Below, in pieces: positions 1 to 64,000 of a stretch of DNA of 64,000 nt (positions are counted from its first letter, which is position 1; each line of letters begins with the position of its first letter). The DNA lies in NCBI GenBank assembly GCA_038049695.1, contig CP142454.1, positions 88,806,501 to 88,870,500 of the forward strand, in the 5' to 3' direction. The position numbers were made by a program, and so were the translations under genes. Source of the DNA: Cinnamomum chago. Lineage: Eukaryota; Streptophyta; Magnoliopsida; Laurales; Lauraceae. The notes beneath the pieces are model-generated. The model had not been told where the DNA came from and made no database searches. It was given only the letters and a program-made list of their open reading frames with translations.

Positions 1-240
1 CTCCTGTTTTAAGAAGGACCAGCATTAGATCTCGTGTAATGTGCATGTTAACTCATGAAAATTGAATAATCATTTCAAGTTAAGTTAATTATCGATTCAT
101 AAAAGGTTACTCAATTTATTCAAACCCCCCAAAATTGCTGGAACAAGAGTTTCACGTATAAAGCCAAGCAAGCTAGTGCCTATGTGTGGATGATGAACCA
201 CTGTCAATGAAGACAACCTACATGGTTTTTAACCTAGTTT

Positions 241-249
241 AAAAAAAAA
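241..249 (+). repeat. A9 homopolymer with T variant in units 8 and 9
   Basis: A run of nine A followed by GAGAAG. In units 8 and 9 the first A is T (19727, 22510), one of the markers that track unit exchange. Confidence 0.85.
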
Positions 250-348
250 GAGAAGCCATCAGACTTTGGCTTTATACCACTATTCTGCCAAAAATGGCTT
301 TTAATATCATAGAAATTGAAAACATCTAATTAAGGATCTCGGTTTTTG

Positions 349-362
349 TGATTACGTCATCA
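349..362. promoter_or_regulatory. bZIP-type site, TGATTACGTCATCA
   Basis: The 14-base word is almost palindromic around ACGT and includes TTACGTCA at 352-359, close to the TGACGTCA core bound by TGA/CREB-type bZIP proteins. It is present once per unit. The core is unchanged in all copies I checked; unit 22 has one flanking change at 58815. Binding is inferred from the motif only. Confidence 0.35.
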
Positions 363-732: not shown

Positions 733-961
733 GGCCCGTTGGTTAGTATGGAATTCGGAATGCATAGGAACTCATTGATGGGATCGGCCAAAACGGGTGT
801 GTTTGTTTGCATGGAACTAAAACACATAGTAGATATAATTTAGACGCGCCTATTTGTTGGCAGGTGAGGTCCCCTATTTGAGGACTTTGCTCTACCATTT
901 TGAACCCAATTTATCATTTTCAAATCACTTTCAAATGGCATGTTTGTTAGCGGAAGAGGAA
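733..961 (+). repeat. Four degenerate direct repeats, TGTTTGTT-type
   Basis: Related words begin near 733, 795, 846 and 937, each of the general form GGC-x-TGTTTGTTxGCATGGAA. The best copies are GTGTGTTTGTTTGCATGGAA (797-816) and GGCATGTTTGTTAGCGGAAG. Spacing is irregular (about 62, 51 and 91). Words of this kind are common at the ends of plant DNA transposons, so this stretch may be nested terminal fragments. No inverted partner was found. Confidence 0.4.
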
Positions 962-987
962 TCTCCCATCCAAATTAGAGGATTTTG

Positions 988-2076: not shown

Positions 2077-2132
2077 CATTTTTCATATGGGACCGACGGA
2101 AGATTCCACACGGGCCCATATGTGAAAAAATG
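2077..2132. repeat. Upstream hairpin around CATATG words
   Basis: CATTTTTCATATGGG (2077-2091) pairs with 2115-2132 apart from three unpaired bases, with a 23-base loop. It lies directly left of the foldback and is separate from it. The loop contains a TTCCACACGG word that recurs as TTCCCACACGG near 2364 in direct orientation. Confidence 0.75.
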
Positions 2133-2173
2133 GAAAGATGCAGGATTTCCGCCGTTGAAATCAGCGGTAATTA

Positions 2174-2224
2174 TGCATTTTCCACATTTCCTCCGCTCAC
2201 AGAGGAGGAAAAGTGGAAAATGCA
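2174..2224. repeat. Inner hairpin A, 21-bp stem
   Basis: Arms 2174-2194 and 2204-2224 pair at 20 of 21 positions across a 9-base loop. The stem core reads TGCATTTTCCAC on the left and GTGGAAAATGCA on the right. This is the left half of the foldback. Confidence 0.9.
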
Positions 2225-2271
2225 GCTTCACTGCATATGCAACTTTTCGGCCTCTGAAAGCAGCGGTAAAG

Positions 2272-2324
2272 CTGTATTTTTCACTTTTCCTCCTCTCCGA
2301 GCAGGGGAAAAGTGGAAAATGCAG
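2272..2324. repeat. Inner hairpin B, 21-bp stem with wobble pairs
   Basis: Arms 2272-2292 and 2304-2324 pair at 18 of 21 positions. The other three would be G-U pairs in RNA of the + strand, so the transcript stem would be continuous; the loop has 11 bases. Offset 2307 G-to-A in units 4, 5 and 19 breaks one pair, while offset 2305 G-to-A in unit 23 turns a wobble into an A-T pair. Confidence 0.87.
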
Positions 2325-2412
2325 TTTTACCGATGCTTTCAACGGCGGAAAACCTGCGGTTAGTTCCCACACGGCTCCGATGCTATTTTCCATCTTTTTT
2401 TTACTTAGGGGG

Positions 2413-2696: not shown

Positions 2697-2731
2697 ATCA
2701 AGGCGTGTATTTCGCTTCGTGTGCACCGGAT

Positions 2732-2784: not shown

Positions 2785-5568
2785 CTCCTGTTTTAAGAAG
2801 GACCAGCATTAGATCTCGTGTAATGTGCATGTTAACTCATGAAAATTGAATAATCATTTCAAGTTAAGTTAATTATCGATTCATAAAAGGTTACTCAATT
2901 TATTCAAACCCCCCAAAATTGCTGGAACAAGAGTTTCACGTATAAAGCCAAGCAAGCTAGTGCCTATGTGTGGATGATGAACCACTGTCAATGAAGACAA
3001 CCTACATGGTTTTTAACCTAGTTTAAAAAAAAAGAGAAGCCATCAGACTTTGGCTTTATACCACTATTCTGCCAAAAATGGCTTTTAATATCATAGAAAT
3101 TGAAAACATCTAATTAAGGATCTCGGTTTTTGTGATTACGTCATCATAAGTCTTATCCTAACACCAACCCTTGGCTAATGTAAAAGCTAGGTTTGAAGCG
3201 TTTGGCTCCTGTGACTCAGATTTCAAAGATAAGTTTGAAATATCAATGGTGGCGCCCGCTCAAAACTAAAACCCGATGACTCGTGTGCTTTTGTTCCAAA
3301 ATAAGTTTATCGTGTTTGATGATCTTTCAATTCCAATTCCACAAGGGGTCTCTAAACTCATAAAAGGACCACACGTATATCCAGTGAACCTAAGAAACTT
3401 TGGGGAAACGATGTACTCCACGGGATCAAACCATCAAAACAGAGAAAAACACCTTGGACATGAGCTTCGCTGGATTTCTAGAGTAACATGCTTGCACCAA
3501 GGGTATGTTGATTGATGGCCCGTTGGTTAGTATGGAATTCGGAATGCATAGGAACTCATTGATGGGATCGGCCAAAACGGGTGTGTTTGTTTGCATGGAA
3601 CTAAAACACATAGTAGATATAATTTAGACGCGCCTATTTGTTGGCAGGTGAGGTCCCCTATTTGAGGACTTTGCTCTACCATTTTGAACCCAATTTATCA
3701 TTTTCAAATCACTTTCAAATGGCATGTTTGTTAGCGGAAGAGGAATCTCCCATCCAAATTAGAGGATTTTGTTTTTTTTTTTCCTTTTGTTCCCCTGGCA
3801 TCATGGCTATTCTCAATGAGGATTCTCAGGGAAGAAAGATCGCATTCCATGTTTGGCTAACAGAGTGGAACAACACACTTTACACTGTACTACATCGAGC
3901 AGTTCATTATTTCCCACCTGCTTTACAATATCCAAGAGAAACCAAGGCATGGAATTTCAATGCTAGTTATTTTCAACCTTCGAAAGAAGGTCAACGGTTT
4001 CGATTGTGAATTAAAGGGCCCATAGAAGTCCACAAAAGTAGCAGATGGGCTTGTTTGAAATTTCCCACCAATTTCTTAAAATCCGTGATGAATCAACGAC
4101 TAAAATTCGACCTCTAGTCGGTTTTGGCCTTCTGAAGATTATAAACGGTAAATCACCAAGTAAGTGGATAAATTAAAATACTATTATGCATGATTTTCTC
4201 TATTTTTCTCTTTTAATTCGATGATTAGGAATATATTAGGTATTGTTGATCCCGTCAAATTCATATCTCTATTCTACCACACTAGTCAATTTCAATCATA
4301 AACCATGTGATGAATCTTGATTCTAGATTGGCATGTTAGGGATCTTTTTTGAAGTCCATGACTAGCCTCAATTGCTACTGTGAATTTATAAAGTACATGC
4401 ATGTTGCATGGACCGTGTGAATTACCTTAAAATCAATGATCGATGGCATCCATGGGTCCAAAAAAGATTTATCATTCACGTTGTGGGAAATTCACCATGA
4501 CCGTACAGTCCACGGTGGGGCTCCACAGAAGCCATGTTGGCCAAATCGATGGGCCACCCAATGGTTGTGTAGACCGCCATGTCTCGTTGTAGTTGGGTTA
4601 AGTATTTCAAGTCCATGTTTGCTGGTAGAATCTCTTATGCACGCTTGTATACATGCTGCAGAAAATCTGCTAAAATTTATATTTTTCAAACCTCTATAGG
4701 AATTTATTTTATGAGAAATTAAAAAAAAAAACCTCGCACTTTCCTGGAAGAAAAAGTGTCCGCAACAGACATGGATCTTGTTAGTAGATAGAAAACCATT
4801 TCCGCAGTCCTCACTTTTTTTCATGAATGGGCCCTACAGTGGAGTTGAAAAGAAATCATGCATTTTTCATATGGGACCGACGGAAGATTCCACACGGGCC
4901 CATATGTGAAAAAATGGAAAGATGCAGGATTTCCGCCGTTGAAATCAGCGGTAATTATGCATTTTCCACATTTCCTCCGCTCACAGAGGAGGAAAAGTGG
5001 AAAATGCAGCTTCACTGCATATGCAACTTTTCGGCCTCTGAAAGCAGCGGTAAAGCTGTATTTTTCACTTTTCCTCCTCTCCGAGCAGGGGAAAAGTGGA
5101 AAATGCAGTTTTACCGATGCTTTCAACGGCGGAAAACCTGCGGTTAGTTCCCACACGGCTCCGATGCTATTTTCCATCTTTTTTTTACTTAGGGGGACGT
5201 GGGGCACTTGTGCCTTGCATTTTCTTTGCGCACACCATCCACGTGTCATCATAGTGGGGCCCGGCTAATGAGTAATCTGAATGGACTACACATGGAGGAC
5301 GCCCCTGAATTAGGCCGTTTGCACGATTTGCTCTACGAGTTCAATTTTGAAAAAGGCCGAAACTCGTTGGCTACTGATAAAAGGGATTTGGATGATTACA
5401 TAGGATCCATTTTTCGTAAGATGTAGGTCACAACCAGATTAAGATCTCTCCACCCGGCCGCATCCCCAGGTGGGCCCCACATCAAGGGGTGTATTTCGCT
5501 TCGTGTGCACCGGATAACCACCAAACAAGGATTTCTTCTTTTAACAAAGACTGGTGGTTGGGCTTAGT
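2785..5568 (+). repeat. Satellite unit 2 (T11 class)
   Basis: Full-length 2,784-bp copy. I see no difference from the T11 consensus. It appears identical to units 3, 14, 17 and 18. Confidence 0.95.
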
Positions 5569-8352
5569 CTCCTGTTTTAAGAAGGACCAGCATTAGATCT
5601 CGTGTAATGTGCATGTTAACTCATGAAAATTGAATAATCATTTCAAGTTAAGTTAATTATCGATTCATAAAAGGTTACTCAATTTATTCAAACCCCCCAA
5701 AATTGCTGGAACAAGAGTTTCACGTATAAAGCCAAGCAAGCTAGTGCCTATGTGTGGATGATGAACCACTGTCAATGAAGACAACCTACATGGTTTTTAA
5801 CCTAGTTTAAAAAAAAAGAGAAGCCATCAGACTTTGGCTTTATACCACTATTCTGCCAAAAATGGCTTTTAATATCATAGAAATTGAAAACATCTAATTA
5901 AGGATCTCGGTTTTTGTGATTACGTCATCATAAGTCTTATCCTAACACCAACCCTTGGCTAATGTAAAAGCTAGGTTTGAAGCGTTTGGCTCCTGTGACT
6001 CAGATTTCAAAGATAAGTTTGAAATATCAATGGTGGCGCCCGCTCAAAACTAAAACCCGATGACTCGTGTGCTTTTGTTCCAAAATAAGTTTATCGTGTT
6101 TGATGATCTTTCAATTCCAATTCCACAAGGGGTCTCTAAACTCATAAAAGGACCACACGTATATCCAGTGAACCTAAGAAACTTTGGGGAAACGATGTAC
6201 TCCACGGGATCAAACCATCAAAACAGAGAAAAACACCTTGGACATGAGCTTCGCTGGATTTCTAGAGTAACATGCTTGCACCAAGGGTATGTTGATTGAT
6301 GGCCCGTTGGTTAGTATGGAATTCGGAATGCATAGGAACTCATTGATGGGATCGGCCAAAACGGGTGTGTTTGTTTGCATGGAACTAAAACACATAGTAG
6401 ATATAATTTAGACGCGCCTATTTGTTGGCAGGTGAGGTCCCCTATTTGAGGACTTTGCTCTACCATTTTGAACCCAATTTATCATTTTCAAATCACTTTC
6501 AAATGGCATGTTTGTTAGCGGAAGAGGAATCTCCCATCCAAATTAGAGGATTTTGTTTTTTTTTTTCCTTTTGTTCCCCTGGCATCATGGCTATTCTCAA
6601 TGAGGATTCTCAGGGAAGAAAGATCGCATTCCATGTTTGGCTAACAGAGTGGAACAACACACTTTACACTGTACTACATCGAGCAGTTCATTATTTCCCA
6701 CCTGCTTTACAATATCCAAGAGAAACCAAGGCATGGAATTTCAATGCTAGTTATTTTCAACCTTCGAAAGAAGGTCAACGGTTTCGATTGTGAATTAAAG
6801 GGCCCATAGAAGTCCACAAAAGTAGCAGATGGGCTTGTTTGAAATTTCCCACCAATTTCTTAAAATCCGTGATGAATCAACGACTAAAATTCGACCTCTA
6901 GTCGGTTTTGGCCTTCTGAAGATTATAAACGGTAAATCACCAAGTAAGTGGATAAATTAAAATACTATTATGCATGATTTTCTCTATTTTTCTCTTTTAA
7001 TTCGATGATTAGGAATATATTAGGTATTGTTGATCCCGTCAAATTCATATCTCTATTCTACCACACTAGTCAATTTCAATCATAAACCATGTGATGAATC
7101 TTGATTCTAGATTGGCATGTTAGGGATCTTTTTTGAAGTCCATGACTAGCCTCAATTGCTACTGTGAATTTATAAAGTACATGCATGTTGCATGGACCGT
7201 GTGAATTACCTTAAAATCAATGATCGATGGCATCCATGGGTCCAAAAAAGATTTATCATTCACGTTGTGGGAAATTCACCATGACCGTACAGTCCACGGT
7301 GGGGCTCCACAGAAGCCATGTTGGCCAAATCGATGGGCCACCCAATGGTTGTGTAGACCGCCATGTCTCGTTGTAGTTGGGTTAAGTATTTCAAGTCCAT
7401 GTTTGCTGGTAGAATCTCTTATGCACGCTTGTATACATGCTGCAGAAAATCTGCTAAAATTTATATTTTTCAAACCTCTATAGGAATTTATTTTATGAGA
7501 AATTAAAAAAAAAAACCTCGCACTTTCCTGGAAGAAAAAGTGTCCGCAACAGACATGGATCTTGTTAGTAGATAGAAAACCATTTCCGCAGTCCTCACTT
7601 TTTTTCATGAATGGGCCCTACAGTGGAGTTGAAAAGAAATCATGCATTTTTCATATGGGACCGACGGAAGATTCCACACGGGCCCATATGTGAAAAAATG
7701 GAAAGATGCAGGATTTCCGCCGTTGAAATCAGCGGTAATTATGCATTTTCCACATTTCCTCCGCTCACAGAGGAGGAAAAGTGGAAAATGCAGCTTCACT
7801 GCATATGCAACTTTTCGGCCTCTGAAAGCAGCGGTAAAGCTGTATTTTTCACTTTTCCTCCTCTCCGAGCAGGGGAAAAGTGGAAAATGCAGTTTTACCG
7901 ATGCTTTCAACGGCGGAAAACCTGCGGTTAGTTCCCACACGGCTCCGATGCTATTTTCCATCTTTTTTTTACTTAGGGGGACGTGGGGCACTTGTGCCTT
8001 GCATTTTCTTTGCGCACACCATCCACGTGTCATCATAGTGGGGCCCGGCTAATGAGTAATCTGAATGGACTACACATGGAGGACGCCCCTGAATTAGGCC
8101 GTTTGCACGATTTGCTCTACGAGTTCAATTTTGAAAAAGGCCGAAACTCGTTGGCTACTGATAAAAGGGATTTGGATGATTACATAGGATCCATTTTTCG
8201 TAAGATGTAGGTCACAACCAGATTAAGATCTCTCCACCCGGCCGCATCCCCAGGTGGGCCCCACATCAAGGGGTGTATTTCGCTTCGTGTGCACCGGATA
8301 ACCACCAAACAAGGATTTCTTCTTTTAACAAAGACTGGTGGTTGGGCTTAGT
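5569..8352 (+). repeat. Satellite unit 3 (T11 class)
   Basis: Full-length copy matching the T11 consensus at every site I checked; no private variant seen. Confidence 0.95.
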
Positions 8353-11136
8353 CTCCTGTTTTAAGAAGGACCAGCATTAGATCTCGTGTAATGTGCATGT
8401 TAACTCATGAAAATTGAATAATCATTTCAAGTTAAGTTAATTATCGATTCATAAAAGGTTACTCAATTTATTCAAACCCCCCAAAATTGCTGGAACAAGA
8501 GTTTCACGTATAAAGCCAAGCAAGCTAGTGCCTATGTGTGGATGATGAACCACTGTCAATGAAGACAACCTACATGGTTTTTAACCTAGTTTAAAAAAAA
8601 AGAGAAGCCATCAGACTTTGGCTTTATACCACTATTCTGCCAAAAATGGCTTTTAATATCATAGAAATTGAAAACATCTAATTAAGGATCTCGGTTTTTG
8701 TGATTACGTCATCATAAGTCTTATCCTAACACCAACCCTTGGCTAATGTAAAAGCTAGGTTTGAAGCGTTTGGCTCCTGTGACTCAGATTTCAAAGATAA
8801 GTTTGAAATATCAATGGTGGCGCCCGCTCAAAACTAAAACCCGATGACTCGTGTGCTTTTGTTCCAAAATAAGTTTATCGTGTTTGATGATCTTTCAATT
8901 CCAATTCCACAAGGGGTCTCTAAACTCATAAAAGGACCACACGTATATCCAGTGAACCTAAGAAACTTTGGGGAAACGATGTACTCCACGGGATCAAACC
9001 ATCAAAACAGAGAAAAACACCTTGGACATGAGCTTCACTGGATTTCTAGAGTAACATGCTTGCACCAAGGGTATGTTGATTGATGGCCCGTTGGTTAGTA
9101 TGGAATTCGGAATGCATAGGAACTCATTGATGGGATCGGCCAAAACGGGTGTGTTTGTTTGCATGGAACTAAAACACATAGTAGATATAATTTAGACGCG
9201 CCTATTTGTTGGCAGGTGAGGTCCCCTATTTGAGGACTTTGCTCTACCATTTTGAACCCAATTTATCATTTTCAAATCACTTTCAAATGGCATGTTTGTT
9301 AGCGGAAGAGGAATCTCCCATCCAAATTAGAGGATTTTGTTTTTTTTTTTCCTTTTGTTCCCCTGGCATCATGGCTATTCTCAATGAGGATTCTCAGGGA
9401 AGAAAGATCGCATTCCATGTTTGGCTAACAGAGTGGAACAACACACTTTACACTGTACTACATCGAGCAGTTCATTATTTCCCACCTGCTTTACAATATC
9501 CAAGAGAAACCAAGGCATGGAATTTCAATGCTAGTTATTTTCAACCTTCGAAAGAAGGTCAACGGTTTCGATTGTGAATTAAAGGGCCCATAGAAGTCCA
9601 CAAAAGTAGCAGATGGGCTTGTTTGAAATTTCCCACCAATTTCTTAAAATCCGTGATGAATCAACGACTAAAATTCGACCTCTAGTCGGTTTTGGCCTTC
9701 TGAAGATTATAAACGGTAAATCACCAAGTAAGTGGATAAATTAAAATACTATTATGCATGATTTTCTCTATTTTTCTCTTTTAATTCGATGATTAGGAAT
9801 ATATTAGGTATTGTTGATCCCGTCAAATTCATATCTCTATTCTACCACACTAGTCAATTTCAATCATAAACCATGTGATGAATCTTGATTCTAGATTGGC
9901 ATGTTAGGGATCTTTTTTGAAGTCCATGACTAGCCTCAATTGCTACTGTGAATTTATAAAGTACATGCATGTTGCATGGACCGTGTGAATTACCTTAAAA
10001 TCAATGATCGATGGCATCCATGGGTCCAAAAAAGATTTATCATTCACGTTGTGGGAAATTCACCATGACCGTACAGTCCACGGTGGGGCTCCACAGAAGC
10101 CATGTTGGCCAAATCGATGGGCCACCCAATGGTTGTGTAGACCGCCATGTCTCGTTGTAGTTGGGTTAAGTATTTCAAGTCCATGTTTGCTGGTAGAATC
10201 TCTTATGCACGCTTGTATACATGCTGCAGAAAATCTGCTAAAATTTATATTTTTCAAACCTCTATAGGAATTTATTTTATGAGAAATTAAAAAAAAAAAC
10301 CTCGCACTTTCCTGGAAGAAAAAGTGTCCGCAACAGACATGGATCTTGTTAGTAGATAGAAAACCATTTCCGCAGTCCTCACTTTTTTTCATGAATGGGC
10401 CCTACAGTGGAGTTGAAAAGAAATCATGCATTTTTCATATGGGACCGACGGAAGATTCCACACGGGCCCATATGTGAAAAAATGGAAAGATGCAGGATTT
10501 CCGCCGTTGAAATCAGCGGTAATTATGCATTTTCCACATTTCCTCCGCTCACAGAGGAGGAAAAGTGGAAAATGCAGCTTCACTGCATATGCAACTTTTC
10601 GGCCTCTGAAAGCAGCGGTAAAGCTGTATTTTTCACTTTTCCTCCTCTCCGAGCAGGGAAAAAGTGGAAAATGCAGTTTTACCGATGCTTTCAACGGCGG
10701 AAAACCTGCGGTTAGTTCCCACACGGCTCCGATGCTATTTTCCATCTTTTTTTTACTTAGGGGGACGTGGGGCACTTGTGCCTTGCATTTTCTTTGCGCA
10801 CACCATCCACGTGTCATCATAGTGGGGCCCGGCTAATGAGTAATCTGAATGGACTACACATGGAGGACGCCCCTGAATTAGGCCGTTTGCACGATTTGCT
10901 CTACGAGTTCAATTTTGAAAAAGGCCGAAACTCGTTGGCTACTGATAAAAGGGATTTGGATGATTACATAGGATCCATTTTTCGTAAGATGTAGGTCACA
11001 ACCAGATTAAGATCTCTCCACCCGGCCGCATCCCCAGGTGGGCCCCACATCAAGGGGTGTATTTCGCTTCGTGTGCACCGGATAACCACCAAACAAGGAT
11101 TTCTTCTTTTAACAAAGACTGGTGGTTGGGCTTAGT
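8353..11136 (+). repeat. Satellite unit 4 (T11 class)
   Basis: Full-length copy with a private G-to-A at 9037 (unit offset 685). It also has G-to-A at 10659 (offset 2307), inside the right arm of the foldback. The second variant is shared with units 5 and 19 and removes a G-C pair from the hairpin stem. Confidence 0.95.
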
Positions 11137-50104: not shown

Positions 50105-52888
50105 CTCCTGTTTTAAGAAGGACCAGCATTAGATCTCGTGTAATGTGCATGTTAACTCATGAAAATTGAATAATCATTTCAAGTTAAGTTAATTATCGAT
50201 TCATAAAAGGTTACTCAATTTATTCAAACCCCCCAAAATTGCTGGAACAAGAGTTTCACGTATAAAGCCAAGCAAGCTAGTGCCTATGTGTGGATGATGA
50301 ACCACTGTCAATGAAGACAACCTACATGGTTTTTAACCTAGTTTAAAAAAAAAGAGAAGCCATCAGACTTTGGCTTTATACCACTATTCTGCCAAAAATG
50401 GCTTTTAATATCATAGAAATTGAAAACATCTAATTAAGGATCTCGGTTTTTGTGATTACGTCATCATAAGTCTTATCCTAACACCAACCCTTGGCTAATG
50501 TAAAAGCTAGGTTTGAAGCGTTTGGCTCCTGTGACTCAGATTTCAAAGATAAGTTTGAAATATCAATGGTGGCGCCCGCTCAAAACTAAAACCCGATGAC
50601 TCGTGTGCTTTTGTTCCAAAATAAGTTTATCGTGTTTGATGATCTTTCAATTCCAATTCCACAAGGGGTCTCTAAACTCATAAAAGGACCACACGTATAT
50701 CCAGTGAACCTAAGAAACTTTGGGGAAACGATGTACTCCACGGGATCAAACCATCAAAACAGAGAAAAACACCTTGGACATGAGCTTCGCTGGATTTCTA
50801 GAGTAACATGCTTGCACCAAGGGTATGTTGATTGATGGCCCGTTGGTTAGTATGGAATTCGGAATGCATAGGAACTCATTGATGGGATCGGCCAAAACGG
50901 GTGTGTTTGTTTGCATGGAACTAAAACACATAGTAGATATAATTTAGACGCGCCTATTTGTTGGCAGGTGAGGTCCCCTATTTGAGGACTTTGCTCTACC
51001 ATTTTGAACCCAATTTATCATTTTCAAATCACTTTCAAATGGCATGTTTGTTAGCGGAAGAGGAATCTCCCATCCAAATTAGAGGATTTTGTTTTTTTTT
51101 TTCCTTTTGTTCCCCTGGCATCATGGCTATTCTCAATGAGGATTCTCAGGGAAGAAAGATCGCATTCCATGTTTGGCTAACAGAGTGGAACAACACACTT
51201 TACACTGTACTACATCGAGCAGTTCATTATTTCCCACCTGCTTTACAATATCCAAGAGAAACCAAGGCATGGAATTTCAATGCTAGTTATTTTCAACCTT
51301 CGAAAGAAGGTCAACGGTTTCGATTGTGAATTAAAGGGCCCATAGAAGTCCACAAAAGTAGCAGATGGGCTTGTTTGAAATTTCCCACCAATTTCTTAAA
51401 ATCCGTGATGAATCAACGACTAAAATTCGACCTCTAGTCGGTTTTGGCCTTCTGAAGATTATAAACGGTAAATCACCAAGTAAGTGGATAAATTAAAATA
51501 CTATTATGCATGATTTTCTCTATTTTTCTCTTTTAATTCGATGATTAGGAATATATTAGGTATTGTTGATCCCGTCAAATTCATATCTCTATTCTACCAC
51601 ACTAGTCAATTTCAATCATAAACCATGTGATGAATCTTGATTCTAGATTGGCATGTTAGGGATCTTTTTTGAAGTCCATGACTAGCCTCAATTGCTACTG
51701 TGAATTTATAAAGTACATGCATGTTGCATGGACCGTGTGAATTACCTTAAAATCAATGATCGATGGCATCCATGGGTCCAAAAAAGATTTATCATTCACG
51801 TTGTGGGAAATTCACCATGACCGTACAGTCCACGGTGGGGCTCCACAGAAGCCATGTTGGCCAAATCGATGGGCCACCCAATGGTTGTGTAGACCGCCAT
51901 GTCTCGTTGTAGTTGGGTTAAGTATTTCAAGTCCATGTTTGCTGGTAGAATCTCTTATGCACGCTTGTATACATGCTGCAGAAAATCTGCTAAAATTTAT
52001 ATTTTTCAAACCTCTATAGGAATTTATTTTATGAGAAATTAAAAAAAAAAACCTCGCACTTTCCTGGAAGAAAAAGTGTCCGCAACAGACATGGATCTTG
52101 TTAGTAGATAGAAAACCATTTCCGCAGTCCTCACTTTTTTTCATGAATGGGCCCTACAGTGGAGTTGAAAAGAAATCATGCATTTTTCATATGGGACCGA
52201 CGGAAGATTCCACACGGGCCCATATGTGAAAAAATGGAAAGATGCAGGATTTCCGCCGTTGAAATCAGCGGTAATTATGCATTTTCCACATTTCCTCCGC
52301 TCACAGAGGAGGAAAAGTGGAAAATGCAGCTTCACTGCATATGCAACTTTTCGGCCTCTGAAAGCAGCGGTAAAGCTGTATTTTTCACTTTTCCTCCTCT
52401 CCGAGCAGGGAAAAAGTGGAAAATGCAGTTTTACCGATGCTTTCAACGGCGGAAAACCTGCGGTTAGTTCCCACACGGCTCCGATGCTATTTTCCATCTT
52501 TTTTTTACTTAGGGGGACGTGGGGCACTTGTGCCTTGCATTTTCTTTAAGCACACCATCCACGTGTCATCATAGTGGGGCCCGGCTAATGAGTAATCTGA
52601 ATGGACTACACATGGAGGACGCCCCTGAATTAGGCCGTTTGCACGATTTGCTCTACGAGTTCAATTTTGAAAAAGGCCGAAACTCGTTGGCTACTGATAA
52701 AAGGGATTTGGATGATTACATAGGATCCATTTTTCGTAAGATGTAGGTCACGACCAGATTAAGATCTCTCCACCCGGCCGCATCCCCAGGTGGGCCCCAC
52801 ATCAAGGGGTGTATTTCGCTTCGTGTGCACCGGATAACCACCAAACAAGGATTTCTTCTTTTAACAAAGACTGGTGGTTGGGCTTAGT
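50105..52888 (+). repeat. Satellite unit 19 (T11 class, rare haplotype)
   Basis: Carries A at 52411, AA at 52548-52549 and G at 52752, the same four linked substitutions as unit 5. Like unit 5 it is followed directly by a T10 block. Confidence 0.95.
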
Positions 52889-55671
52889 CTCCTGTTTTAA
52901 GAAGGACCAGCATTAGATCTCGTGTAATGTGCATGTTAACTCATGAAAATTGAATAATCATTTCAAGTTAAGTTAATTATCGATTCATAAAAGGTTACTC
53001 AATTTATTCAAACCCCCCAAAATTGCTGGAACAAGAGTTTCACGTATAAAGCCAAGCAAGCTAGTGCCTATGTGTGGATGATGAACCACTGTCAATGAAG
53101 ACAACCTACATGGTTTTTAACCTAGTTTAAAAAAAAAGAGAAGCCATCAGACTTTGGCTTTATACCACTATTCTGCCAAAAATGGCTTTTAATATCATAG
53201 AAATTGAAAACATCTAATTAAGGATCTCGGTTTTTGTGATTACGTCATCATAAGTCTTATCCTAACACCAACCCTTGGCTAATGTAAAAGCTAGGTTTGA
53301 AGCGTTTGGCTCCTGTGACTCAGATTTCAAAGATAAGTTTGAAATATCAATGGTGGCGCCCGCTCAAAACTAAAACCCGATGACTCGTGTGGTTTTGTTC
53401 CAAAATAAGTTTATCGTGTTTGATGATCTTTCAATTCCAATTCCACAAGGGGTCTCTAAACTCATAAAAGGACCACACGTATATCCAGTGAACCTAAGAA
53501 ACTTTGGGGAAACGATGTACTCCACGGGATCAAACCATCAAAACAGAGAAAAACACCTTGGACATGAGCTTCGCTGGATTTCTAGAGTAACATGCTTGCA
53601 CCAAGGGTATGTTGATTGATGGCCCGTTGGTTAGTATGGAATTCGGAATGCATACGAACTCATTGATGGGATCGGCCAAAACGGGTGTGTTTGTTTGCAT
53701 GGAACTAAAACACATAGTAGATATAATTTAGACGCGCCTATTTGTTGGCAGGTGAGGTCCCCTATTTGAGGACTTTGCTCTACCATTTTGAACCCAATTT
53801 ATCATTTTCAAATCACTTTCAAATGGCATGTTTGTTAGCGGAAGAGGAATCTCCCATCCAAATTAGAGGATTTTGATTTTTTTTTCCTTTTGTTCCCCTG
53901 GCATCATGGCTATTCTCAATGAGGATTCTCAGGGAAGAAAGATCGCATTCCATGTTTGGCTAACAGAGTGGAACAACACACTTTACACTGTACTACATCG
54001 AGCAGTTCATTATTTCCCACCTGCTTTACAATATCCAAGAGAAACCAAGGCATGGAATTTCAATGCTAGTTATTTTCAACCTTCGAAAGAAGGTCAACGG
54101 TTTCGATTGTGAATTAAAGGGCCCATAGAAGTCCACAAAAGTAGCAGATGGGCTTGTTTGAAATTTCCCACCAATTTCTTAAAATCCGTGATGAATCAAC
54201 GACTAAAATTCGACCTCTAGTCGGTTTTGGCCTTCTGAAGATTATAAACGGTAAATCACCAAGTAAGTGGATAAATTAAAATACTATTATGCATGATTTT
54301 CTCTATTTTTCTCTTTTAATTCGATGATTAGGAATATATTAGGTATTGTTGATCCCGTCAAATTCATATCTCTATTCTACCACACTAGTCAATTTCAATC
54401 ATAAACCATGTGATGAATCTTGATTCTAGATTGGCATGTTAGGGATCTTTTTTGAAGTCCATGACTAGCCTCAATTGCTACTGTGAATTTATAAAGTACA
54501 TGCATGTTGCATGGACCGTGTGAATTACCTTAAAATCAATGATCGATGGCATCCATGGGTCCAAAAAAGATTTATCATTCACGTTGTGGGAAATTCACCA
54601 TGACCGTACAGTCCACGGTGGGGCTCCACAGAAGCCATGTTGGCCAAATCGATGGGCCACCCAATGGTTGTGTAGACCGCCATGTCTCGTTGTAGTTGGG
54701 TTAAGTATTTCAAGTCCATGTTTGCTGGTAGAATCTCTTATGCACGCTTGTATACATGCTGCAGAAAATCTGCTAAAATTTATATTTTTCAAACCTCTAT
54801 AGGAATTTATTTTATGAGAAATTAAAAAAAAAAACCTCGCACTTTCCTGGAAGAAAAAGTGTCCGCAACAGACATGGATCTTGTTAGTAGATAGAAAACC
54901 ATTTCCGCAGTCCTCACTTTTTTTCATGAATGGGCCCTACAGTGGAGTTGAAAAGAAATCATGCATTTTTCATATGGGACCGACGGAAGATTCCACACGG
55001 GCCCATATGTGAAAAAATGGAAAGATGCAGGATTTCCGCCGTTGAAATCAGCGGTAATTATGCATTTTCCACATTTCCTCCGCTCACAGAGGAGGAAAAG
55101 TGGAAAATGCAGCTTCACTGCATATGCAACTTTTCGGCCTCTGAAAGCAGCGGTAAAGCTGTATTTTTCACTTTTCCTCCTCTCCGAGCAGGGGAAAAGT
55201 GGAAAATGCAGTTTTACCGATGCTTTCAACGGCGGAAAACCTGCGGTTAGTTCCCACACGGCTCCGATGCTATTTTCCATCTTTTTTTTACTTAGGGGGA
55301 CGTGGGGCACTTGTGCCTTGCATTTTCTTTGCGCACACCATCCACGTGTCATCATAGTGGGGCCCGGCTAATGAGTAATCTGAATGGACTACACATGGAG
55401 GACGCCCCTGAATTAGGCCGTTTGCACGATTTGCTCTACGAGTTCAATTTTGAAAAAGGCCGAAACTCGTTGGCTACTGATAAAAGGGATTTGGATGATT
55501 ACATAGGATCCATTTTTCGTAAGATGTAGGTCACGACCAGATTAAGATCTCTCCACCCGGCCGCATCCCCAGGTGGGCCCCACATCAAGGGGTGTATTTC
55601 GCTTCGTGTGCACCGGATAACCACCAAACAAGGATTTCTTCTTTTAACAAAGACTGGTGGTTGGGCTTAGT
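52889..55671 (+). repeat. Satellite unit 20 (T10 length, interrupted T run)
   Basis: Carries G at 53392 (offset 504, shared with unit 22), private C at 53655 (offset 767), private A at 53876 as the first base of the T run, and G at 55535 (offset 2648, shared with 5, 19 and 21). At offset 988 it therefore reads A plus nine T instead of ten T. Confidence 0.95.
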
Positions 55672-58454
55672 CTCCTGTTTTAAGAAGGACCAGCATTAGA
55701 TCTCGTGTAATGTGCATGTTAACTCATGAAAATTGAATAATCATTTCAAGTTAAGTTAATTATCGATTCATAAAAGGTTACTCAATTTATTCAAACCCCC
55801 CAAAATTGCTGGAACAAGAGTTTCACGTATAAAGCCAAGCAAGCTAGTGCCTATGTGTGGATGATGAACCACTGTCAATGAAGACAACCTACATGGTTTT
55901 TAACCTAGTTTAAAAAAAAAGAGAAGCCATCAGACTTTGGCTTTATACCACTATTCTGCCAAAAATGGCTTTTAATATCATAGAAATTGAAAACATCTAA
56001 TTAAGGATCTCGGTTTTTGTGATTACGTCATCATAAGTCTTATCCTAACACCAACCCTTGGCTAATGTAAAAGCTAGGTTTGAAGCGTTTGGCTCCTGTG
56101 ACTCAGATTTCAAAGATAAGTTTGAAATATCAATGGTGGCGCCCGCTCAAAACTAAAACCCGATGACTCGTGTGCTTTTGTTCCAAAATAAGTTTATCGT
56201 GTTTGATGATCTTTCAATTCCAATTCCACAAGGGGTCTCTAAACTCATAAAAGGACCACACGTATATCCAGTGAACCTAAGAAACTTTGGGGAAACGATG
56301 TACTCCACGGGATCAAACCATCAAAACAGAGAAAAACACCTTGGACATGAGCTTCGCTGGATTTCTAGAGTAACATGCTTGCACCAAGGGTATGTTGATT
56401 GATGGCCCGTTGGTTAGTATGGAATTCGGAATGCATAGGAACTCATTGATGGGATCGGCCAAAACGGGTGTGTTTGTTTGCATGGAACTAAAACACATAG
56501 TAGATATAATTTAGACGCGCCTATTTGTTGGCAGGTGAGGTCCCCTATTTGAGGACTTTGCTCTACCATTTTGAACCCAATTTATCATTTTCAAATCACT
56601 TTCAAATGGCATGTTTGTTAGCGGAAGAGGAATCCCCCATCCAAATTAGAGGATTTTGTTTTTTTTTTCCTTTTGTTCCCCTGGCATCATGGCTATTCTC
56701 AATGAGGATTCTCAGGGAAGAAAGATCGCATTCCATGTTTGGCTAACAGAGTGGAACAACACACTTTACACTGTACTACATCGAGCAGTTCATTATTTCC
56801 CACCTGCTTTACAATATCCAAGAGAAACCAAGGCATGGAATTTCAATGCTAGTTATTTTCAACCTTCGAAAGAAGGTCAACGGTTTCGATTGTGAATTAA
56901 AGGGCCCATAGAAGTCCACAAAAGTAGCAGATGGGCTTGTTTGAAATTTCCCACCAATTTCTTAAAATCCGTGATGAATCAACGACTAAAATTCGACCTC
57001 TAGTCGGTTTTGGCCTTCTGAAGATTATAAACGGTAAATCACCAAGTAAGTGGATAAATTAAAATACTATTATGCATGATTTTCTCTATTTTTCTCTTTT
57101 AATTCGATGATTAGGAATATATTAGGTATTGTTGATCCCGTCAAATTCATATCTCTATTCTACCACACTAGTCAATTTCAATCATAAACCATGTGATGAA
57201 TCTTGATTCTAGATTGGCATGTTAGGGATCTTTTTTGAAGTCCATGACTAGCCTCAATTGCTACTGTGAATTTATAAAGTACATGCATGTTGCATGGACC
57301 GTGTGAATTACCTTAAAATCAATGATCGATGGCATCCATGGGTCCAAAAAAGATTTATCATTCACGTTGTGGGAAATTCACCATGACCGTACAGTCCACG
57401 GTGGGGCTCCACAGAAGCCATGTTGGCCAAATCGATGGGCCACCCAATGGTTGTGTAGACCGCCATGTCTCGTTGTAGTTGGGTTAAGTATTTCAAGTCC
57501 ATGTTTGCTGGTAGAATCTCTTATGCACGCTTGTATACATGCTGCAGAAAATCTGCTAAAATTTATATTTTTCAAACCTCTATAGGAATTTATTTTATGA
57601 GAAATTAAAAAAAAAAACCTCGCACTTTCCTGGAAGAAAAAGTGTCCGCAACAGACATGGATCTTGTTAGTAGATAGAAAACCATTTCCGCAGTCCTCAC
57701 TTTTTTTCATGAATGGGCCCTACAGTGGAGTTGAAAAGAAATCATGCATTTTTCATATGGGACCGACGGAAGATTCCACACGGGCCCATATGTGAAAAAA
57801 TGGAAAGATGCAGGATTTCCGCCGTTGAAATCAGCGGTAATTATGCATTTTCCACATTTCCTCCGCTCACAGAGGAGGAAAAGTGGAAAATGCAGCTTCA
57901 CTGCATATGCAACTTTTCGGCCTCTGAAAGCAGCGGTAAAGCTGTATTTTTCACTTTTCCTCCTCTCCGAGCAGGGGAAAAGTGGAAAATGCAGTTTTAC
58001 CGATGCTTTCAACGGCGGAAAACCTGCGGTTAGTTCCCACACGGCTCCGATGCTATTTTCCATCTTTTTTTTACTTAGGGGGACGTGGGGCACTTGTGCC
58101 TTGCATTTTCTTTGCGCACACCATCCACGTGTCATCATAGTGGGGCCCGGCTAATGAGTAATCTGAATGGACTACACATGGAGGACGCCCCTGAATTAGG
58201 CCGTTTGCACGATTTGCTCTACGAGTTCAATTTTGAAAAAGGCCGAAACTCGTTGGCTACTGATAAAAGGGATTTGGATGATTACATAGGATCCATTTTT
58301 CGTAAGATGTAGGTCACGACCAGATTAAGATCTCTCCACCCGGCCGCATCCCCAGGTGGGCCCCACATCAAGGGGTGTATTTCGCTTCGTGTGCACCGGA
58401 TAACCACCAAACAAGGATTTCTTCTTTTAACAAAGACTGGTGGTTGGGCTTAGT
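55672..58454 (+). repeat. Satellite unit 21 (T10 class)
   Basis: Private T-to-C at 56635 (offset 964) and the shared G at 58318 (offset 2648). It lacks the offset-504 G of its neighbours on both sides. Confidence 0.95.
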
Positions 58455-61237
58455 CTCCTGTTTTAAGAAGGACCAGCATTAGATCTCGTGTAATGTGCAT
58501 GTTAACTCATGAAAATTGAATAATCATTTCAAGTTAAGTTAATTATCGATTCATAAAAGGTTACTCAATTTATTCAAACCCCCCAAAATTGCTGGAACAA
58601 GAGTTTCACGTATAAAGCCAAGCAAGCTAGTGCCTATGTGTGGATGATGAACCACTGTCAATGAAGACAACCTACATGGTTTTTAACCTAGTTTAAAAAA
58701 AAAGAGAAGCCATCAGACTTTGGCTTTATACCACTATTCTGCCAAAAATGGCTTTTAATATCATAGAAATTGAAAACATCTAATTAAGGATCTCGGTTTT
58801 TGTGATTACGTCATTATAAGTCTTATCCTAACACCAACCCTTGGCTAATGTAAAAGCTAGGTTTGAAGCGTTTGGCTCCTGTGACTCAGATTTCAAAGAT
58901 AAGTTTGAAATATCAATGGTGGCGCCCGCTCAAAACTAAAACCCGATGACTCGTGTGGTTTTGTTCCAAAATAAGTTTATCGTGTTTGATGATCTTTCAA
59001 TTCCAATTCCACAAGGGGTCTCTAAACTCATAAAAGGACCACACGTATATCCAGTGAACCTAAGAAACTTTGGGGAAACGATGTACTCCACGGGATCAAA
59101 CCATCAAAACAGAGAAAAACACCTTGGACATGAGCTTCGCTGGATTTCTAGAGTAACATGCTTGCACCAAGGGTATGTTGATTGATGGCCCGTTGGTTAG
59201 TATGGAATTCGGAATGCATAGGAACTCATTGATGGGATCGGCCAAAACGGGTGTGTTTGTTTGCATGGAACTAAAACACATAGTAGATATAATTTAGACG
59301 CGCCTATTTGTTGGCAGGTGAGGTCCCCTATTTGAGGACTTTGCTCTACCATTTTGAACCCAATTTATCATTTTCAAATCACTTTCAAATGGCATGTTTG
59401 TTAGCGGAAGAGGAATCTCCCATCCAAATTAGAGGATTTTGTTTTTTTTTTCCTTTTGTTCCCCTGGCATCATGGCTATTCTCAATGAGGATTCTCAGGG
59501 AAGAAAGATCGCATTCCATGTTTGGCTAACAGAGTGGAACAACACACTTTACACTGTACTACATCGAGCAGTTCATTATTTCCCACCTGCTTTACAATAT
59601 CCAAGAGAAACCAAGGCATGGAATTTCAATGCTAGTTATTTTCAACCTTCGAAAGAAGGTCAACGGTTTCGATTGTGAATTAAAGGGCCCATAGAAGTCC
59701 ACAAAAGTAGCAGATGGGCTTGTTTGAAATTTCCCACCAATTTCTTAAAATCCGTGATGAATCAACGACTAAAATTCGACCTCTAGTCGGTTTTGGCCTT
59801 CTGAAGATTATAAACGGTAAATCACCAAGTAAGTGGATAAATTAAAATACTATTATGCATGATTTTCTCTATTTTTCTCTTTTAATTCGATGATTAGGAA
59901 TATATTAGGTATTGTTGATCCCGTCAAATTCATATCTCTATTCTACCACACTAGTCAATTTCAATCATAAACCATGTGATGAATCTTGATTCTAGATTGG
60001 CATGTTAGGGATCTTTTTTGAAGTCCATGACTAGCCTCAATTGCTACTGTGAATTTATAAAGTACATGCATGTTGCATGGACCGTGTGAATTACCTTAAA
60101 ATCAATGATCGATGGCATCCATGGGTCCAAAAAAGATTTATCATTCACGTTGTGGGAAATTCACCATGACCGTACAGTCCACGGTGGGGCTCCACAGAAG
60201 CCATGTTGGCCAAATCGATGGGCCACCCAATGGTTGTGTAGACCGCCATGTCTCGTTGTAGTTGGGTTAAGTATTTCAAGTCCATGTTTGCTGGTAGAAT
60301 CTCTTATGCACGCTTGTATACATGCTGCAGAAAATCTGCTAAAATTTATATTTTTCAAACCTCTATAGGAATTTATTTTATGAGAAATTAAAAAAAAAAA
60401 CCTCGCACTTTCCTGGAAGAAAAAGTGTCCGCAACAGACATGGATCTTGTTAGTAGATAGAAAACCATTTCCGCAGTCCTCACTTTTTTTCATGAATGGG
60501 CCCTACAGTGGAGTTGAAAAGAAATCATGCATTTTTCATATGGGACCGACGGAAGATTCCACACGGGCCCATATGTGAAAAAATGGAAAGATGCAGGATT
60601 TCCGCCGTTGAAATCAGCGGTAATTATGCATTTTCCACATTTCCTCCGCTCACAGAGGAGGAAAAGTGGAAAATGCAGCTTCACTGCATATGCAACTTTT
60701 CGGCCTCTGAAAGCAGCGGTAAAGCTGTATTTTTCACTTTTCCTCCTCTCCGAGCAGGGGAAAAGTGGAAAATGCAGTTTTACCGATGCTTTCAACGGCG
60801 GAAAACCTGCGGTTAGTTCCCACACGGCTCCGATGCTATTTTCCATCTTTTTTTTACTTAGGGGGACGTGGGGCACTTGTGCCTTGCATTTTCTTTGCGC
60901 ACACCATCCACGTGTCATCATAGTGGGGCCCGGCTAATGAGTAATCTGAATGGACTACACATGGAGGACGCCCCTGAATTAGGCCGTTTGCACGATTTGC
61001 TCTACGAGTTCAATTTTGAAAAAGGCCGAAACTCGTTGGCTACTGATAAAAGGGATTTGGATGATTACATAGGATCCATTTTTCGTAAGATGTAGGTCAC
61101 AACCAGATTAAGATCTCTCCACCCGGCCGCATCCCCAGGTGGGCCCCACATCAAGGGGTGTATTTCGCTTCGTGTGCACCGGATAACCACCAAACAAGGA
61201 TTTCTTCTTTTAACAAAGACTGGTGGTTGGGCTTAGT
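58455..61237 (+). repeat. Satellite unit 22 (T10 class)
   Basis: Private C-to-T at 58815 (offset 361), in the right flank of the bZIP-type site, and G at 58958 (offset 504), shared with unit 20. Offset 2648 is back to consensus A. Confidence 0.95.
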
Positions 61238-64000
61238 CTCCTGTTTTAAGAAGGACCAGCATTAGATCTCGTGTAATGTGCATGTTAACTCATGAAAATT
61301 GAATAATCAATTCAAGTTAAGTTAATTATCGATTCATAAAAGGTTACTCAATTTATTCAAACCCCCCAAAATTGCTGGAACAAGAGTTTCACGTATAAAG
61401 CCAAGCAAGCTTGTGCCTATGTGTGGATGATGAACCACTGTCAATGAAGACAACCTACATGGTTTTTAACCTAGTTTAAAAAAAAAGAGAAGCCATCAGA
61501 CTTTGGCTTTATATCACTATTCTGCCAAAAATGGCTTTTAATATCATAGAAATTGAAAACATCTAATTAAGGATCTCGGTTTTTGTGATTACGTCATCAT
61601 AAGTCTTATCCTAACACCAACCCTTGGCTAATGTAAAAGCTAGGTTTGAAGCGTTTGGCTCCTGTGACTCAGATTTCAAAGATAAGTTTGAAATATCAAT
61701 GGTGGCGCCCGCTCAAAACTAAAACCCGATGACTCGTGTGCTTTTGTTCCAAAATAAGTTTATCGTGTTTGATGATCTTTCAATTCCAATTCCACAAGGG
61801 GTCTCTAAACTCATAAAAGGACCACACGTATATCCAGTGAACCTAAGAAACTTTGGGGAAACGATGTACTCCACGGGATCAAACCATCAAAACAGAGAAA
61901 AACACCTTGGACATGAGCTTCGCTGGATTTCTAGAGTAACATGCTTGCACCAAGGGTATGTTGATTGATGGCCCGTTGGTTAGTATGGAATTCGGAATGC
62001 ATAGGAACTCATTGATGGGATCGGCCAAAACGGTTGTGTTTGTTTGCATGGAACTAAAACACATAGTAGATATAATTTAGACGCGCCTATTTGTTGGCAG
62101 GTGAGGTCCCCTATTTGAGGACTTTGCTCTACCATTTTGAACCCAATTTATCATTTTCAAATCACTTTCAAATGGCATGTTTGTTAGCGGAAGAGGAATC
62201 TCCCATCCAAATTAGAGGATTTTGTTTTTTTTTTCCTTTTGTTCCCCTGGCATGATGGCTATTCTCAATGAGGATTCTCAGGGAAGAAAGATCGCATTCC
62301 ATGTTTGGCTAACAGAGTGGAACAACACACTTTACACTGTACTACATCGAGCAGTTCATTATTTCCCACCTGCTTTACAATATCCAAGAGAAACCAAGGC
62401 ATGGAATTTCAATGCTAGTTATTTTCAACCTTCGAAAGAAGGTCAACGGTTTCGATTGTGAATTAAAGGGCCCATAGAAGTCCACAAAAGTAGCAGATGG
62501 GCTTGTTTGAAATTTCCCACCAATTTCTTAAAATCCGTGATGAATCAACGACTAAAATTCGACCTCTAGTCGGTTTTGGCCTTCTGAAGATTATAAACGG
62601 TAAATCACCAAGTAAGTGGATAAATTAAAATACTATTATGCATGATTTTCTCTATTTTTCTCTTTTAATTCGATGATTAGGAATATATTAGGTATTGTTG
62701 ATCCCGTCAAATTCATATCTCTATTCTACCACACTAGTCAATTTCAATCATAAACCATGTGATGAATCTTGATTCTAGATTGGCATGTTAGGGATCTTTT
62801 TTGAAGTCCATGACTAGCCTCAATTGCTACTGTGAATTTATAAAGTACATGCATGTTGCATGGACCGTGTGAATTACCTTAAAATCAATGATCGATGGCA
62901 TCCATGGGTCCAAAAAAGATTTATCATTCACGTTGTGGGAAATTCACCATGACCGTACAGTCCACGGTGGGGCTCCACAGAAGCCATGTTGGCCAAATCG
63001 ATGGGCCACCCAATGGTTGTGTAGACCGCCATGTCTCGTTGTAGTTGGGTTAAGTATTTCAAGTCCATGTTTGCTGGTAGAATCTCTTATGCACGCTTGT
63101 ATACATGCTGCAGAAAATCTGCTAAAATTTATATTTTTCAAACCTCTATAGGAATTTATTTTATGAGAAATTAAAAAAAAAACCTCGCACTTTCCTGGAA
63201 GAAAAAGTGTCCGCAACAGACATGGATCTTGTTAGTAGATAGAAAACCATTTCCGCAGTCCTCACTTTTTTTCATGAATGGGCCCTACAGTGGAGTTGAA
63301 AAGAAATCATGCATTTTTCATATGGGACCGACGGAAGATTCCACACGGGCCCATATGTGAAAAAATGGAAAGATGCAGGATTTCCGCCGTTGAAATCAGC
63401 GGTAATTATGCATTTTCCACATTTCCTCCGCTCACAGAGGAGGAAAAGTGGAAAATGCAGCTTCACTGCATATGCAACTTTTCGGCCTCTGAAAGCAGCG
63501 GTAAAGCTGTATTTTTCACTTTTCCTCCTCTCCGAGCAGAGGAAAAGTGGAAAATGCAGTTTTACCGATGCTTTCAACGGCGGAAAACCTGCGATTAGTT
63601 CCCACACGGCTCCGATGCTATTTTCCATCTTTTTTTTACTTAGGGGGACGTGGGGCACTTGTGCCTTGCATTTTCTTTACGCACACCATCCACGTGTCAT
63701 CATAGTGGGGCCCGGCTAATGAGTAATCTGAATGGACTACACATGGAGGACGCCCCTGAATTAGGCCGTTTGCACGATTTGCTCTACGAGTTCAATTTTG
63801 AAAAAGGCCGAAACTCGTTCGCTACTGATAAAAGGGATTTGGATGATTACATAGGATCCATTTTTCGTAAGATGTAGGTCACAACCAGATTAAGATCTCT
63901 CCACCCGGCCGCATCCCCAGGTGGGCCCCACATCAAGGGGTGTATTTCGCTTCGTGTGCACCGGATAACCACCAAACAAGGATTTCTTCTTTTAACAAAG
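61238..64000 (+). repeat. Satellite unit 23, divergent and cut by window end
   Basis: Lacks its last 19 bases because the window ends. It has ten substitutions against consensus: 61310, 61412, 61514, 62034, 62254, 63540, 63594, 63679 and 63820 are private in the set, except that 63679 (offset 2444 A) is shared with units 5 and 19; the tenth expected difference may be miscounted, so treat the total as nine or ten. It also has an A run of 10 instead of 11 near 63173. The change at 61412 creates an AAGCTT word absent from other copies. No other unit has more than four changes. Confidence 0.93.

What the first reader, a model, noticed from the sequence alone, without database searches (positions are those of the whole stretch)
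1..64000. Very homogeneous multi-kilobase satellite filling the whole window
Twenty-three head-to-tail copies of a 2.78-kb unit without interruption, inversion or transposon insertion. Typical plant satellites have units of 150-400 bp; multi-kilobase units are less common and are often young, as in some potato centromeres. The near identity points to very recent amplification or strong ongoing homogenisation. I do not recognise the sequence as a described family.
Basis: partly seen in the sequence, partly recalled or inferred. Interest (0 to 1): 0.75.

Follow-up and report, generated by a model that had tools for sequence, protein, structure and literature searches.

The report
Single-locus macrosatellite with shared palindrome
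The window is the middle of one 58-copy array of a 2.78-kb non-coding repeat wedged between two genes; the repeat is almost unique to this place, yet each copy carries a palindrome also found in other, apparently unrelated kilobase-long repeats of the same genome.

Summary
In detail: 22 full copies plus one of 2,763 bp, unit 2,783/2,784 bp, head to tail, 0-8 differences between full copies. In the whole genome (1.06 Gb, 14 contigs, unnamed) a unit probe hits 58 times in one array on contig 4 and twice elsewhere: a single-locus macrosatellite, not a genome-wide satellite. The array (about 165 kb) fills the gap between two convergent genes and ends about 0.8 kb from each stop codon, so a centromeric reading is not supported. 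A homogeneous centre, diverged edges, haplotype blocks and a degenerate edge copy fit long turnover by unequal exchange. A 1.37-unit fragment sits on contig 2, about 6% diverged. Unexpected: a 245-bp palindromic module in each unit is homologous (E about 1e-41) to one in two other families of 1.8-3.2-kb tandem repeats, while the rest of the unit matches none of the 11 stretches of these families that I read. A 17-position module probe has 2,625 exact hits against 14 for its control. Whether the module drives amplification is open. No function is shown.

The parts
2785..5568 (+). unit 2
5569..8352 (+). unit 3
8353..11136 (+). unit 4
11137..13920 (+). unit 5
13921..16703 (+). unit 6 (first of the 2,783-bp units; one T fewer at unit position 988)
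16704..36184 (+). units 7-13, 2,783 bp each
36185..52888 (+). units 14-19, 2,784 bp each
52889..61237 (+). units 20-22, 2,783 bp each
61238..64000 (+). unit 23, 2,763 bp, cut by the window end; the most diverged copy in the window (10-14 differences)
2118..2362 (.). palindromic module of unit 1 (recurs in each unit): two tandem palindromes folding as one long hairpin; homologous to the module of families F2 and F3
897..909 (.). inferred original duplication breakpoint, in unit 1: left-edge homology starts at unit 897, right-edge homology ends at unit 909, 12 bp shared by both array edges

Best explanation
The window lies inside a single-locus macrosatellite. Shown: a 2.78-kb stretch without recognisable gene, between an AAA-ATPase gene (p97/CDC48-NVL type) and a GDSL-lipase gene that converge on it, is present as 58 head-to-tail copies. 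The copies are most alike in the centre, fall into neighbouring haplotype blocks, and are most diverged at the edges. Inferred: it began as a tandem duplication at a 12-bp direct repeat (unit position about 897-909). It has since been expanded, contracted and homogenised by unequal (mostly sister-chromatid) exchange and gene conversion. Once, long ago, a 1.37-unit piece moved to contig 2, perhaps through an extrachromosomal circle. Each unit carries a 245-bp palindromic module shared with two other families of kilobase tandem repeats in this genome. The least committed reading is that the module is an old foldback sequence acquired by the locus before amplification. It plausibly, but not demonstrably, promotes breakage and exchange and so helps tandem growth. 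No coding or RNA product is evident, and I think the array has no selected function.
For: Single locus: 58 + 2 hits of a 40-mer with up to 2 mismatches, reversed control 0 + 0; unit 1438-1790 gave 61 first-look candidates, of which 40 were scored, all 40 in the array. Extent, flanking genes and LTR-like insertion. Exchange: mean substitutions rise from 6.2 between neighbours to 17.8 at 30 units apart; Mantel r 0.49, 0 of 5000 permutations as high; blocks m01-17, m18-25 (mosaic), m26-51, m52-57. Old array: left-edge stretches 86.6% and 88.0% identical to the C4 consensus and 87.0% and 89.1% to C2; in the 866-bp stretch both hold, the C2 copies are 4.3% from each other and 6.5-6.9% from the C4 consensus. 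Breakpoint. Module: E 9e-42 (F2 profile) and 4e-43 (F2/F3 profile); the module-masked unit gave no hit.
Against: The 12-bp breakpoint argument is weakened by an extra 88-bp piece (84% to unit 1119-1207) just left of the left edge, which a single duplication does not explain. The module diverges fast between C2 and C4 (8.7% and 12.0% in its two 150-bp windows against 5.8-6.3% per unit overall; two other windows also reach 8.7%) and shows no covariation beyond shuffles, so there is no sign that it is maintained. F3 pieces fold less strongly than the F1 and F2 modules. A role of the module in amplification rests on association only. Copy number is that of one assembly; no reads were seen.
Confidence: 0.72

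Rival explanations
1. The window unit is a very diverged cousin of families F2 and F3: all descend from one ancestral ~3-kb satellite and only the palindrome is still recognisable.
For: Similar unit sizes: 2.78 kb here, about 2.64 and 2.78 kb for two F3 loci, 1.8-3.2 kb for F2. F2 and F3 are themselves only 65-77% alike over several hundred bases outside the best module match. With the F3 profile the alignment ran beyond the module, to unit 2542 in one copy and 2450 in the other, identical copy, and a non-significant F3 match lies at unit 957-1078 (E 0.62).
Against: With the F2 and F2/F3 profiles (99 and 137 aligned stretches) homology stops at the module edges, and the module-masked unit has no hit with any of the three profiles (one search agrees), whereas F2 and F3 align well beyond the module.
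Confidence: 0.25
2. The module is an ordinary foldback or MITE-like transposon that landed in several loci; tandem amplification is unrelated to it.
For: Palindromic, non-coding, shared between units that otherwise do not match, 1,079 first-look candidates (40 scored) for the hairpin piece.
Against: Of the first 100 listed exact hits (of 2,625) of a 17-position probe, 88 lie in 13 clusters of two or more, mostly about 1.6-3.1 kb apart (45 of the 88 in one array; 2 are the C2 fragment of the window's own family), and 12 are single. I saw no target-site duplication by eye. The other 2,525 places were not listed.
Confidence: 0.25
3. The array works as a regulatory, small-RNA-producing tandem repeat, like the maize b1 and Pl1-Rhoades repeats that mediate paramutation.
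For: Nearly locus-unique non-coding repeats between convergent genes as at Pl1-Rhoades (PMC11166354, section 6 and passages); each unit holds a long hairpin (-146.3 kcal/mol, z -13.9).
Against: No expression, methylation or small-RNA data. CpG observed/expected 0.69, higher than in the two flanks at 0.47 and 0.56. No covariation in the hairpin.
Confidence: 0.06
4. A centromeric or neocentromeric satellite.
For: Kilobase, chromosome-specific units are known from potato and Vicia centromeres (passages of PMC4107277, PMC5895790).
Against: Only about 165 kb, with genes about 0.8 kb away on both sides, at 88.8 of 98.6 Mb.
Confidence: 0.03
5. Assembly artefact: a few copies inflated to 58.
For: Units are nearly identical; raw reads are not available.
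Against: Copies carry ordered haplotype blocks and private variants. Only two exact internal repeats reach 7 kb, 10.8 and 9.2 kb, within reach of long accurate reads.
Confidence: 0.05

Closest known systems
Human macrosatellites (D4Z4, DXZ4, MSR5p and others)
   Same: Units of several kilobases, tens of copies, one or two loci, spans often of hundreds of kilobases (definition and unit sizes seen in passages of PMC3599962)
   Different: Several human examples encode a protein or a transcript; nothing is seen here. Copy-number polymorphism was not tested here.
Maize Pl1-Rhoades penta-repeat and b1 hepta-repeat
   Same: Non-coding direct repeats at a gene. Pl1: 2,092 bp x5, reaching about 100 bp from the next, convergent gene (PMC11166354, section 6). 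b1: 853 bp x7, unique to its place in the genome (PMC3798267, passages).
   Different: 58 copies rather than 5 or 7; no known epigenetic effect; copies differ slightly; both neighbouring genes lie within about 0.8 kb.
Long-monomer plant satellites: potato centromeric arrays (979 bp-5.4 kb), Vicia faba (687-2033 bp), rye B chromosomes (0.9-4.0 kb)
   Same: Kilobase monomers, some chromosome-specific (passages of PMC4107277 and PMC5895790)
   Different: Potato arrays are megabase-sized and centromeric, the Vicia ones mostly pericentric and seen by FISH; this one is about 165 kb between genes.
Families F2 and F3 of the same genome (named here)
   Same: Tandem repeats of 1.8-3.2 kb (F2) and about 2.64-2.78 kb (F3, two loci) that carry the homologous palindromic module; F2 also has one large regular array (C8, 3.19 kb)
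   Different: Unit bodies do not match the window unit; present at several loci, for F2 among them three within about 8-40 kb of contig ends

Membership tests
macrosatellite | tandem units of several kilobases, array of 100 kb or more | tested here: met
   58 units of 2.78 kb, about 165 kb
macrosatellite | confined to one or two loci | tested here: met
   58 + 2 hits at up to 2 mismatches in 40; more diverged copies could be missed, although 40 of 40 scored hits of a 353-bp piece (61 candidates) lay in the array
macrosatellite | copy-number polymorphism between individuals | not testable with these tools
   one assembly only
genome-wide satellite DNA family | long arrays at several loci or in heterochromatin | tested here: not met
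   one array and one short fragment; genes about 0.8 kb away; chromatin itself not tested
centromeric satellite | CENH3 association | not testable with these tools
   position between genes at 88.8 of 98.6 Mb argues against
satellite families F2/F3 of this genome | homologous unit body | tested here: not met
   module-masked unit: no profile hit; best blastn E 0.20 against 0.53 for the reversed control; but F3 alignments of the unmasked unit ran past the module edge
satellite families F2/F3 of this genome | palindromic module | tested here: met
   E 9e-42 (F2 profile), 4e-43 (F2/F3 profile), about unit 2118-2362
paramutation-type regulatory repeat | small RNAs and heritable silencing dependent on repeat number | not testable with these tools
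   no expression or epigenetic data
tandem LTR-retrotransposon array | LTRs and retrotransposon domains within the unit | tested here: inconclusive
   no Pfam family above its cut-off in 8 unit ORFs and no direct repeat longer than 94 nt in the unit; a domain-less element would escape both
microRNA gene | Rfam match above gathering score | tested here: not met
   window 1-5800: best 34.2 bits against a gathering score of 67; the hits lie on the hairpin

The most novel reading that the evidence does not exclude
The 245-bp palindromic module is a portable amplification element: by stalling forks or breaking, it turns whatever intergenic DNA it lands in into a kilobase macrosatellite. This would explain why arrays with unrelated unit bodies in one genome share it and nothing else.
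Probability: 0.14. Interest if true: 0.78.

Novelty: new variant of a known kind. Interest (0 to 1): 0.45.

Why it matters
Here a macrosatellite can be read from gene to gene, with its probable birth breakpoint, edge fossil, haplotype blocks and one exported fragment in one assembly, which makes models of unequal exchange testable. If the shared palindrome proves to promote tandem growth, it would bear on how satellites start, which is poorly understood. As it stands the array is probably neutral.

Tried and rejected
Coding or RNA gene in the unit: 8 longer ORFs gave no Pfam family above its cut-off (only row: Expansin_C, E 0.24, 12 bits against 24.6). No tRNA in the window. Rfam on window 1-5800: 20 sub-threshold microRNA rows on the hairpin. 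A virus of similar unit length (recalled) was considered and dropped, as the largest stop-to-stop ORF in window 1-5600 is 147 aa. No match in 72,556 plasmid records or 50,697 phage records. A 14-unit higher-order repeat was suspected from the autocorrelation. I take it for the phase of a one-base length variant plus partly repeated haplotypes; the longest exact repeats are 10.8 kb at 15 units and 9.2 kb at 1 unit. Conserved hairpin RNA: 96.7% of cells paired over 5 sequences, but 208 of 500 shuffles do as well. Telomeric repeats: none in the 43 loci then held; contig ends were not read. An F3 body probe to classify the remaining clusters did not complete. Papers: searches listed nothing that I recognised as this array or module; the library is partial and the species is unknown. 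PMC6567227 and PMC7004042 were opened (passages) and not used.
Full report
Observation. The window holds 23 head-to-tail copies of a 2,783/2,784-bp unit, 22 of them full. Full copies differ by 0-8 positions; the last, cut copy is the most diverged (10-14). Inside the window there is no gap, and the constant spacing leaves no inversion or insertion.

Where it lies. The window is G000:C4:88806501-88870500 of a 1.06-Gb assembly in 14 contigs. I do not know the species; that it is a plant is my inference. A 40-mer of the unit, up to 2 mismatches, hits 58 times on the + strand at C4:88,728,358-88,887,069 and twice on the - strand at C2:11.608-11.611 Mb, with 0 hits of the reversed control. A 353-bp piece gave 61 first-look candidates, of which 40 were scored, all in this array. 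So the unit is a single-locus macrosatellite, not a genome-wide satellite, with the reserve that copies much more diverged could be missed.

Anatomy of the array. I read 220 kb of contig 4 from 88.69 to 88.91 Mb, with the window in the middle. To the left there is a degenerate copy: pieces 86.6% and 88.0% alike, with internal gaps, then 98.7% over its last 670 bp. To the right the last unit is split by a 3,654-bp LTR-like insertion (TG...CA, 5-bp duplication TGTAG), and the array ends at unit position 909 (88,891,781). Left-edge homology starts at unit 897, so both ends meet at one point of the unit and share 12 bp (ATTTTGATCCCA). For random ends I reckon a chance of about 1% for such a coincidence (my estimate, made after the fact). 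I read this as the original duplication breakpoint. An extra 88-bp piece (84% to unit 1119-1207) just outside the left edge is not explained by it.

Neighbours. On the left a gene on the + strand ends at 88,726,308. One exon matches p97/CDC48 chains (best E 4.9e-24) and nuclear VCP-like protein (E 4.3e-19) in the PDB, and AAA_lid_3 below its cut-off in Pfam. On the right a gene on the - strand ends at about 88,892,561. One exon gives GDSL lipase at E 6.9e-05 and 23.5 bits, just under the Pfam cut-off of 23.6. The genes converge on the array, each stop codon about 0.8 kb away.

How it evolves. Over the 57 units mean pairwise difference is 13.3 substitutions (0.48%), maximum 41. It rises with distance along the array: 6.2 for neighbours, 17.8 at 30 units; Mantel r 0.49, 0 of 5000 permutations as high. 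Variants fall into blocks m01-m17, m18-m25 (mosaic), m26-m51 and m52-m57. The window is m29-m51, whose full units m29-m50 differ by 2.5 substitutions on average (0.09%). A homogeneous centre with diverged edges is what I expect from unequal exchange (recalled; Smith's model is mentioned in passages of PMC8122249). The only exact internal repeats of 7 kb or more are 10,832 and 9,221 bp, so long accurate reads could have resolved the order; I saw no reads.

The fragment on contig 2. C2:11,607,800-11,611,605 (- strand) holds 1.37 units with ends at unit 1919 and 168, not at the inferred breakpoint. A full C2 unit is 5.8-6.3% from the C4 units. In the stretch that both C2 copies hold they differ by 37 of 866 positions, and by 56 of 865 and 60 of 866 from the C4 consensus. 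The left-edge copy on C4 is about equally far from C4 (86.6%, 88.0%) and C2 (87.0%, 89.1%). I infer that a tandem state existed before the piece moved. Circles of tandem repeats are a known route (abstract of PMC3225859) but are not shown here.

The palindromic module. Unit 2140-2357 is two tandem palindromes that fold as one hairpin, -146.3 kcal/mol, z -13.9 for a 261-nt piece; 23 other 245-nt windows of the unit average -54.9 and reach -75.1 at best, against -141.0 for the module. A 23-mer of it, up to 2 mismatches, has 485 + 354 hits in the genome (control 0 + 1), of which 143 lie in the contig-4 region I hold. A 27-mer of the F2 form, up to 1 mismatch, has 205 + 385 (control 0 + 0). An exact 17-position form has 1,286 + 1,339 (control 4 + 10). 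Lists stop at 100 places. Of the 100 listed, 88 fall in 13 clusters of two or more (my limit 7.5 kb), mostly about 1.6-3.1 kb apart, and 12 are single. Of the 88, 45 are one array and 2 the C2 fragment of the window's own family. The unlisted 2,525 are unknown.

Other arrays with the module. Family F2: a regular 3,186-bp array on C8 from 70.11 to at least 70.42 Mb (the first 100 of 14 + 188 hits of a body probe, control 0 + 0), and relatives at C7 end, C6 end, C5 end, C4:81.4, C2:11.83, C11:1.85 and C7:49.4, whose best pairwise alignments are 86-93% alike. Family F3: C6:80.98 (period about 2.64 kb) and C4:25.58, 88% alike, 65-77% to F2 in parts; and C2:1.97-2.10 Mb, about 2.78 kb spacing, 77-80% to F3 in the 1 kb I read. 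Clusters at about 3.0 kb on C1, C3 and C4:19.35 were not classified. Profiles of F2 (99 aligned stretches) and F2/F3 (137) find the window unit at about 2118-2362 with E 9e-42 and 4e-43. The F3 profile does so with E about 3e-41 and runs on to 2542 in one copy and 2450 in the other. With the module masked none of the three finds anything (one search agrees: best blastn E 0.20, reversed control 0.53). F3 pieces fold less strongly per base (-0.32 and -0.37 kcal/mol) than F1 (-0.58) and F2 (-0.67), in windows that I chose.

What that means. Three readings remain: the bodies are unrelated and the module was acquired; the whole unit is a cousin worn beyond recognition; or the module is a transposon and tandem growth is a coincidence. 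The edges of homology favour the first or the third, the F3 overrun leaves room for the second. The clustering hints at a link with tandem growth, but F2 and F3 count as one case, so the association rests on two independent bodies. The module also shows no constraint: its two windows differ by 8.7% and 12.0% between C2 and C4 (two other windows also reach 8.7%), and pairing shows no more covariation than shuffles (208 of 500 as high).

Comparison with the known. In size, copy number and confinement it fits the macrosatellite definition seen in passages of PMC3599962. The closest plant parallel that I saw is the maize Pl1-Rhoades penta-repeat, 2,092 bp x5, next to a convergent gene (PMC11166354, section 6 and passages), then b1 (853 bp x7; passages of PMC3798267). 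Long plant monomers are known from potato, Vicia and rye B chromosomes (passages of PMC4107277, PMC5895790). None of these was tested for shared sequence; no plant repeat library was at hand.

Verdict. The array itself is a new member of a known kind, an unusually complete one. The shared palindrome makes it a new variant worth a specialist's look. Function: most likely none.

Noticed in passing
L036 (G000:C8:70112001-70122000) and C8 up to at least 70.42 Mb: A second, larger regular macrosatellite with a 3,186-bp unit (99.2-99.7% between copies in the 10 kb read), with three exact module hits per unit.
   Followed up: partly
L046 and G000:C2:1965979-2095576: A ~130-kb array at about 2,780-bp spacing of family F3; its spacing nearly equals that of the window unit although the bodies do not match.
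   Followed up: partly
L042 (C5 end), L040 (C6 start), L037 (C7 end): F2 repeats lie within about 8-40 kb of three contig ends, suggesting a subterminal habit; no telomere repeat was found in the stretches held and the very ends were not read.
   Followed up: no
G000:C4:88887073-88890726 (L029/L030): A 3,654-bp solo-LTR-like insertion with a 5-bp target duplication inside the last unit, the only large insertion seen in the array.
   Followed up: yes
G000:C4:88727114-88727201 (L019): An 88-bp piece resembling unit 1119-1207 (84%) directly before the inferred left breakpoint; unexplained by a single founding duplication.
   Followed up: no
G000:C2:11607800-11611605 and C2:11826000-11841000: The only other copy of the window unit lies about 215 kb from an F2 array that carries the same module.
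   Followed up: no
L037, about 3780-4360: An insertion with an end reading CACTACGCCAAAA (by eye; CACTA-like end recalled) interrupts an F2 unit at the C7 end.
   Followed up: no
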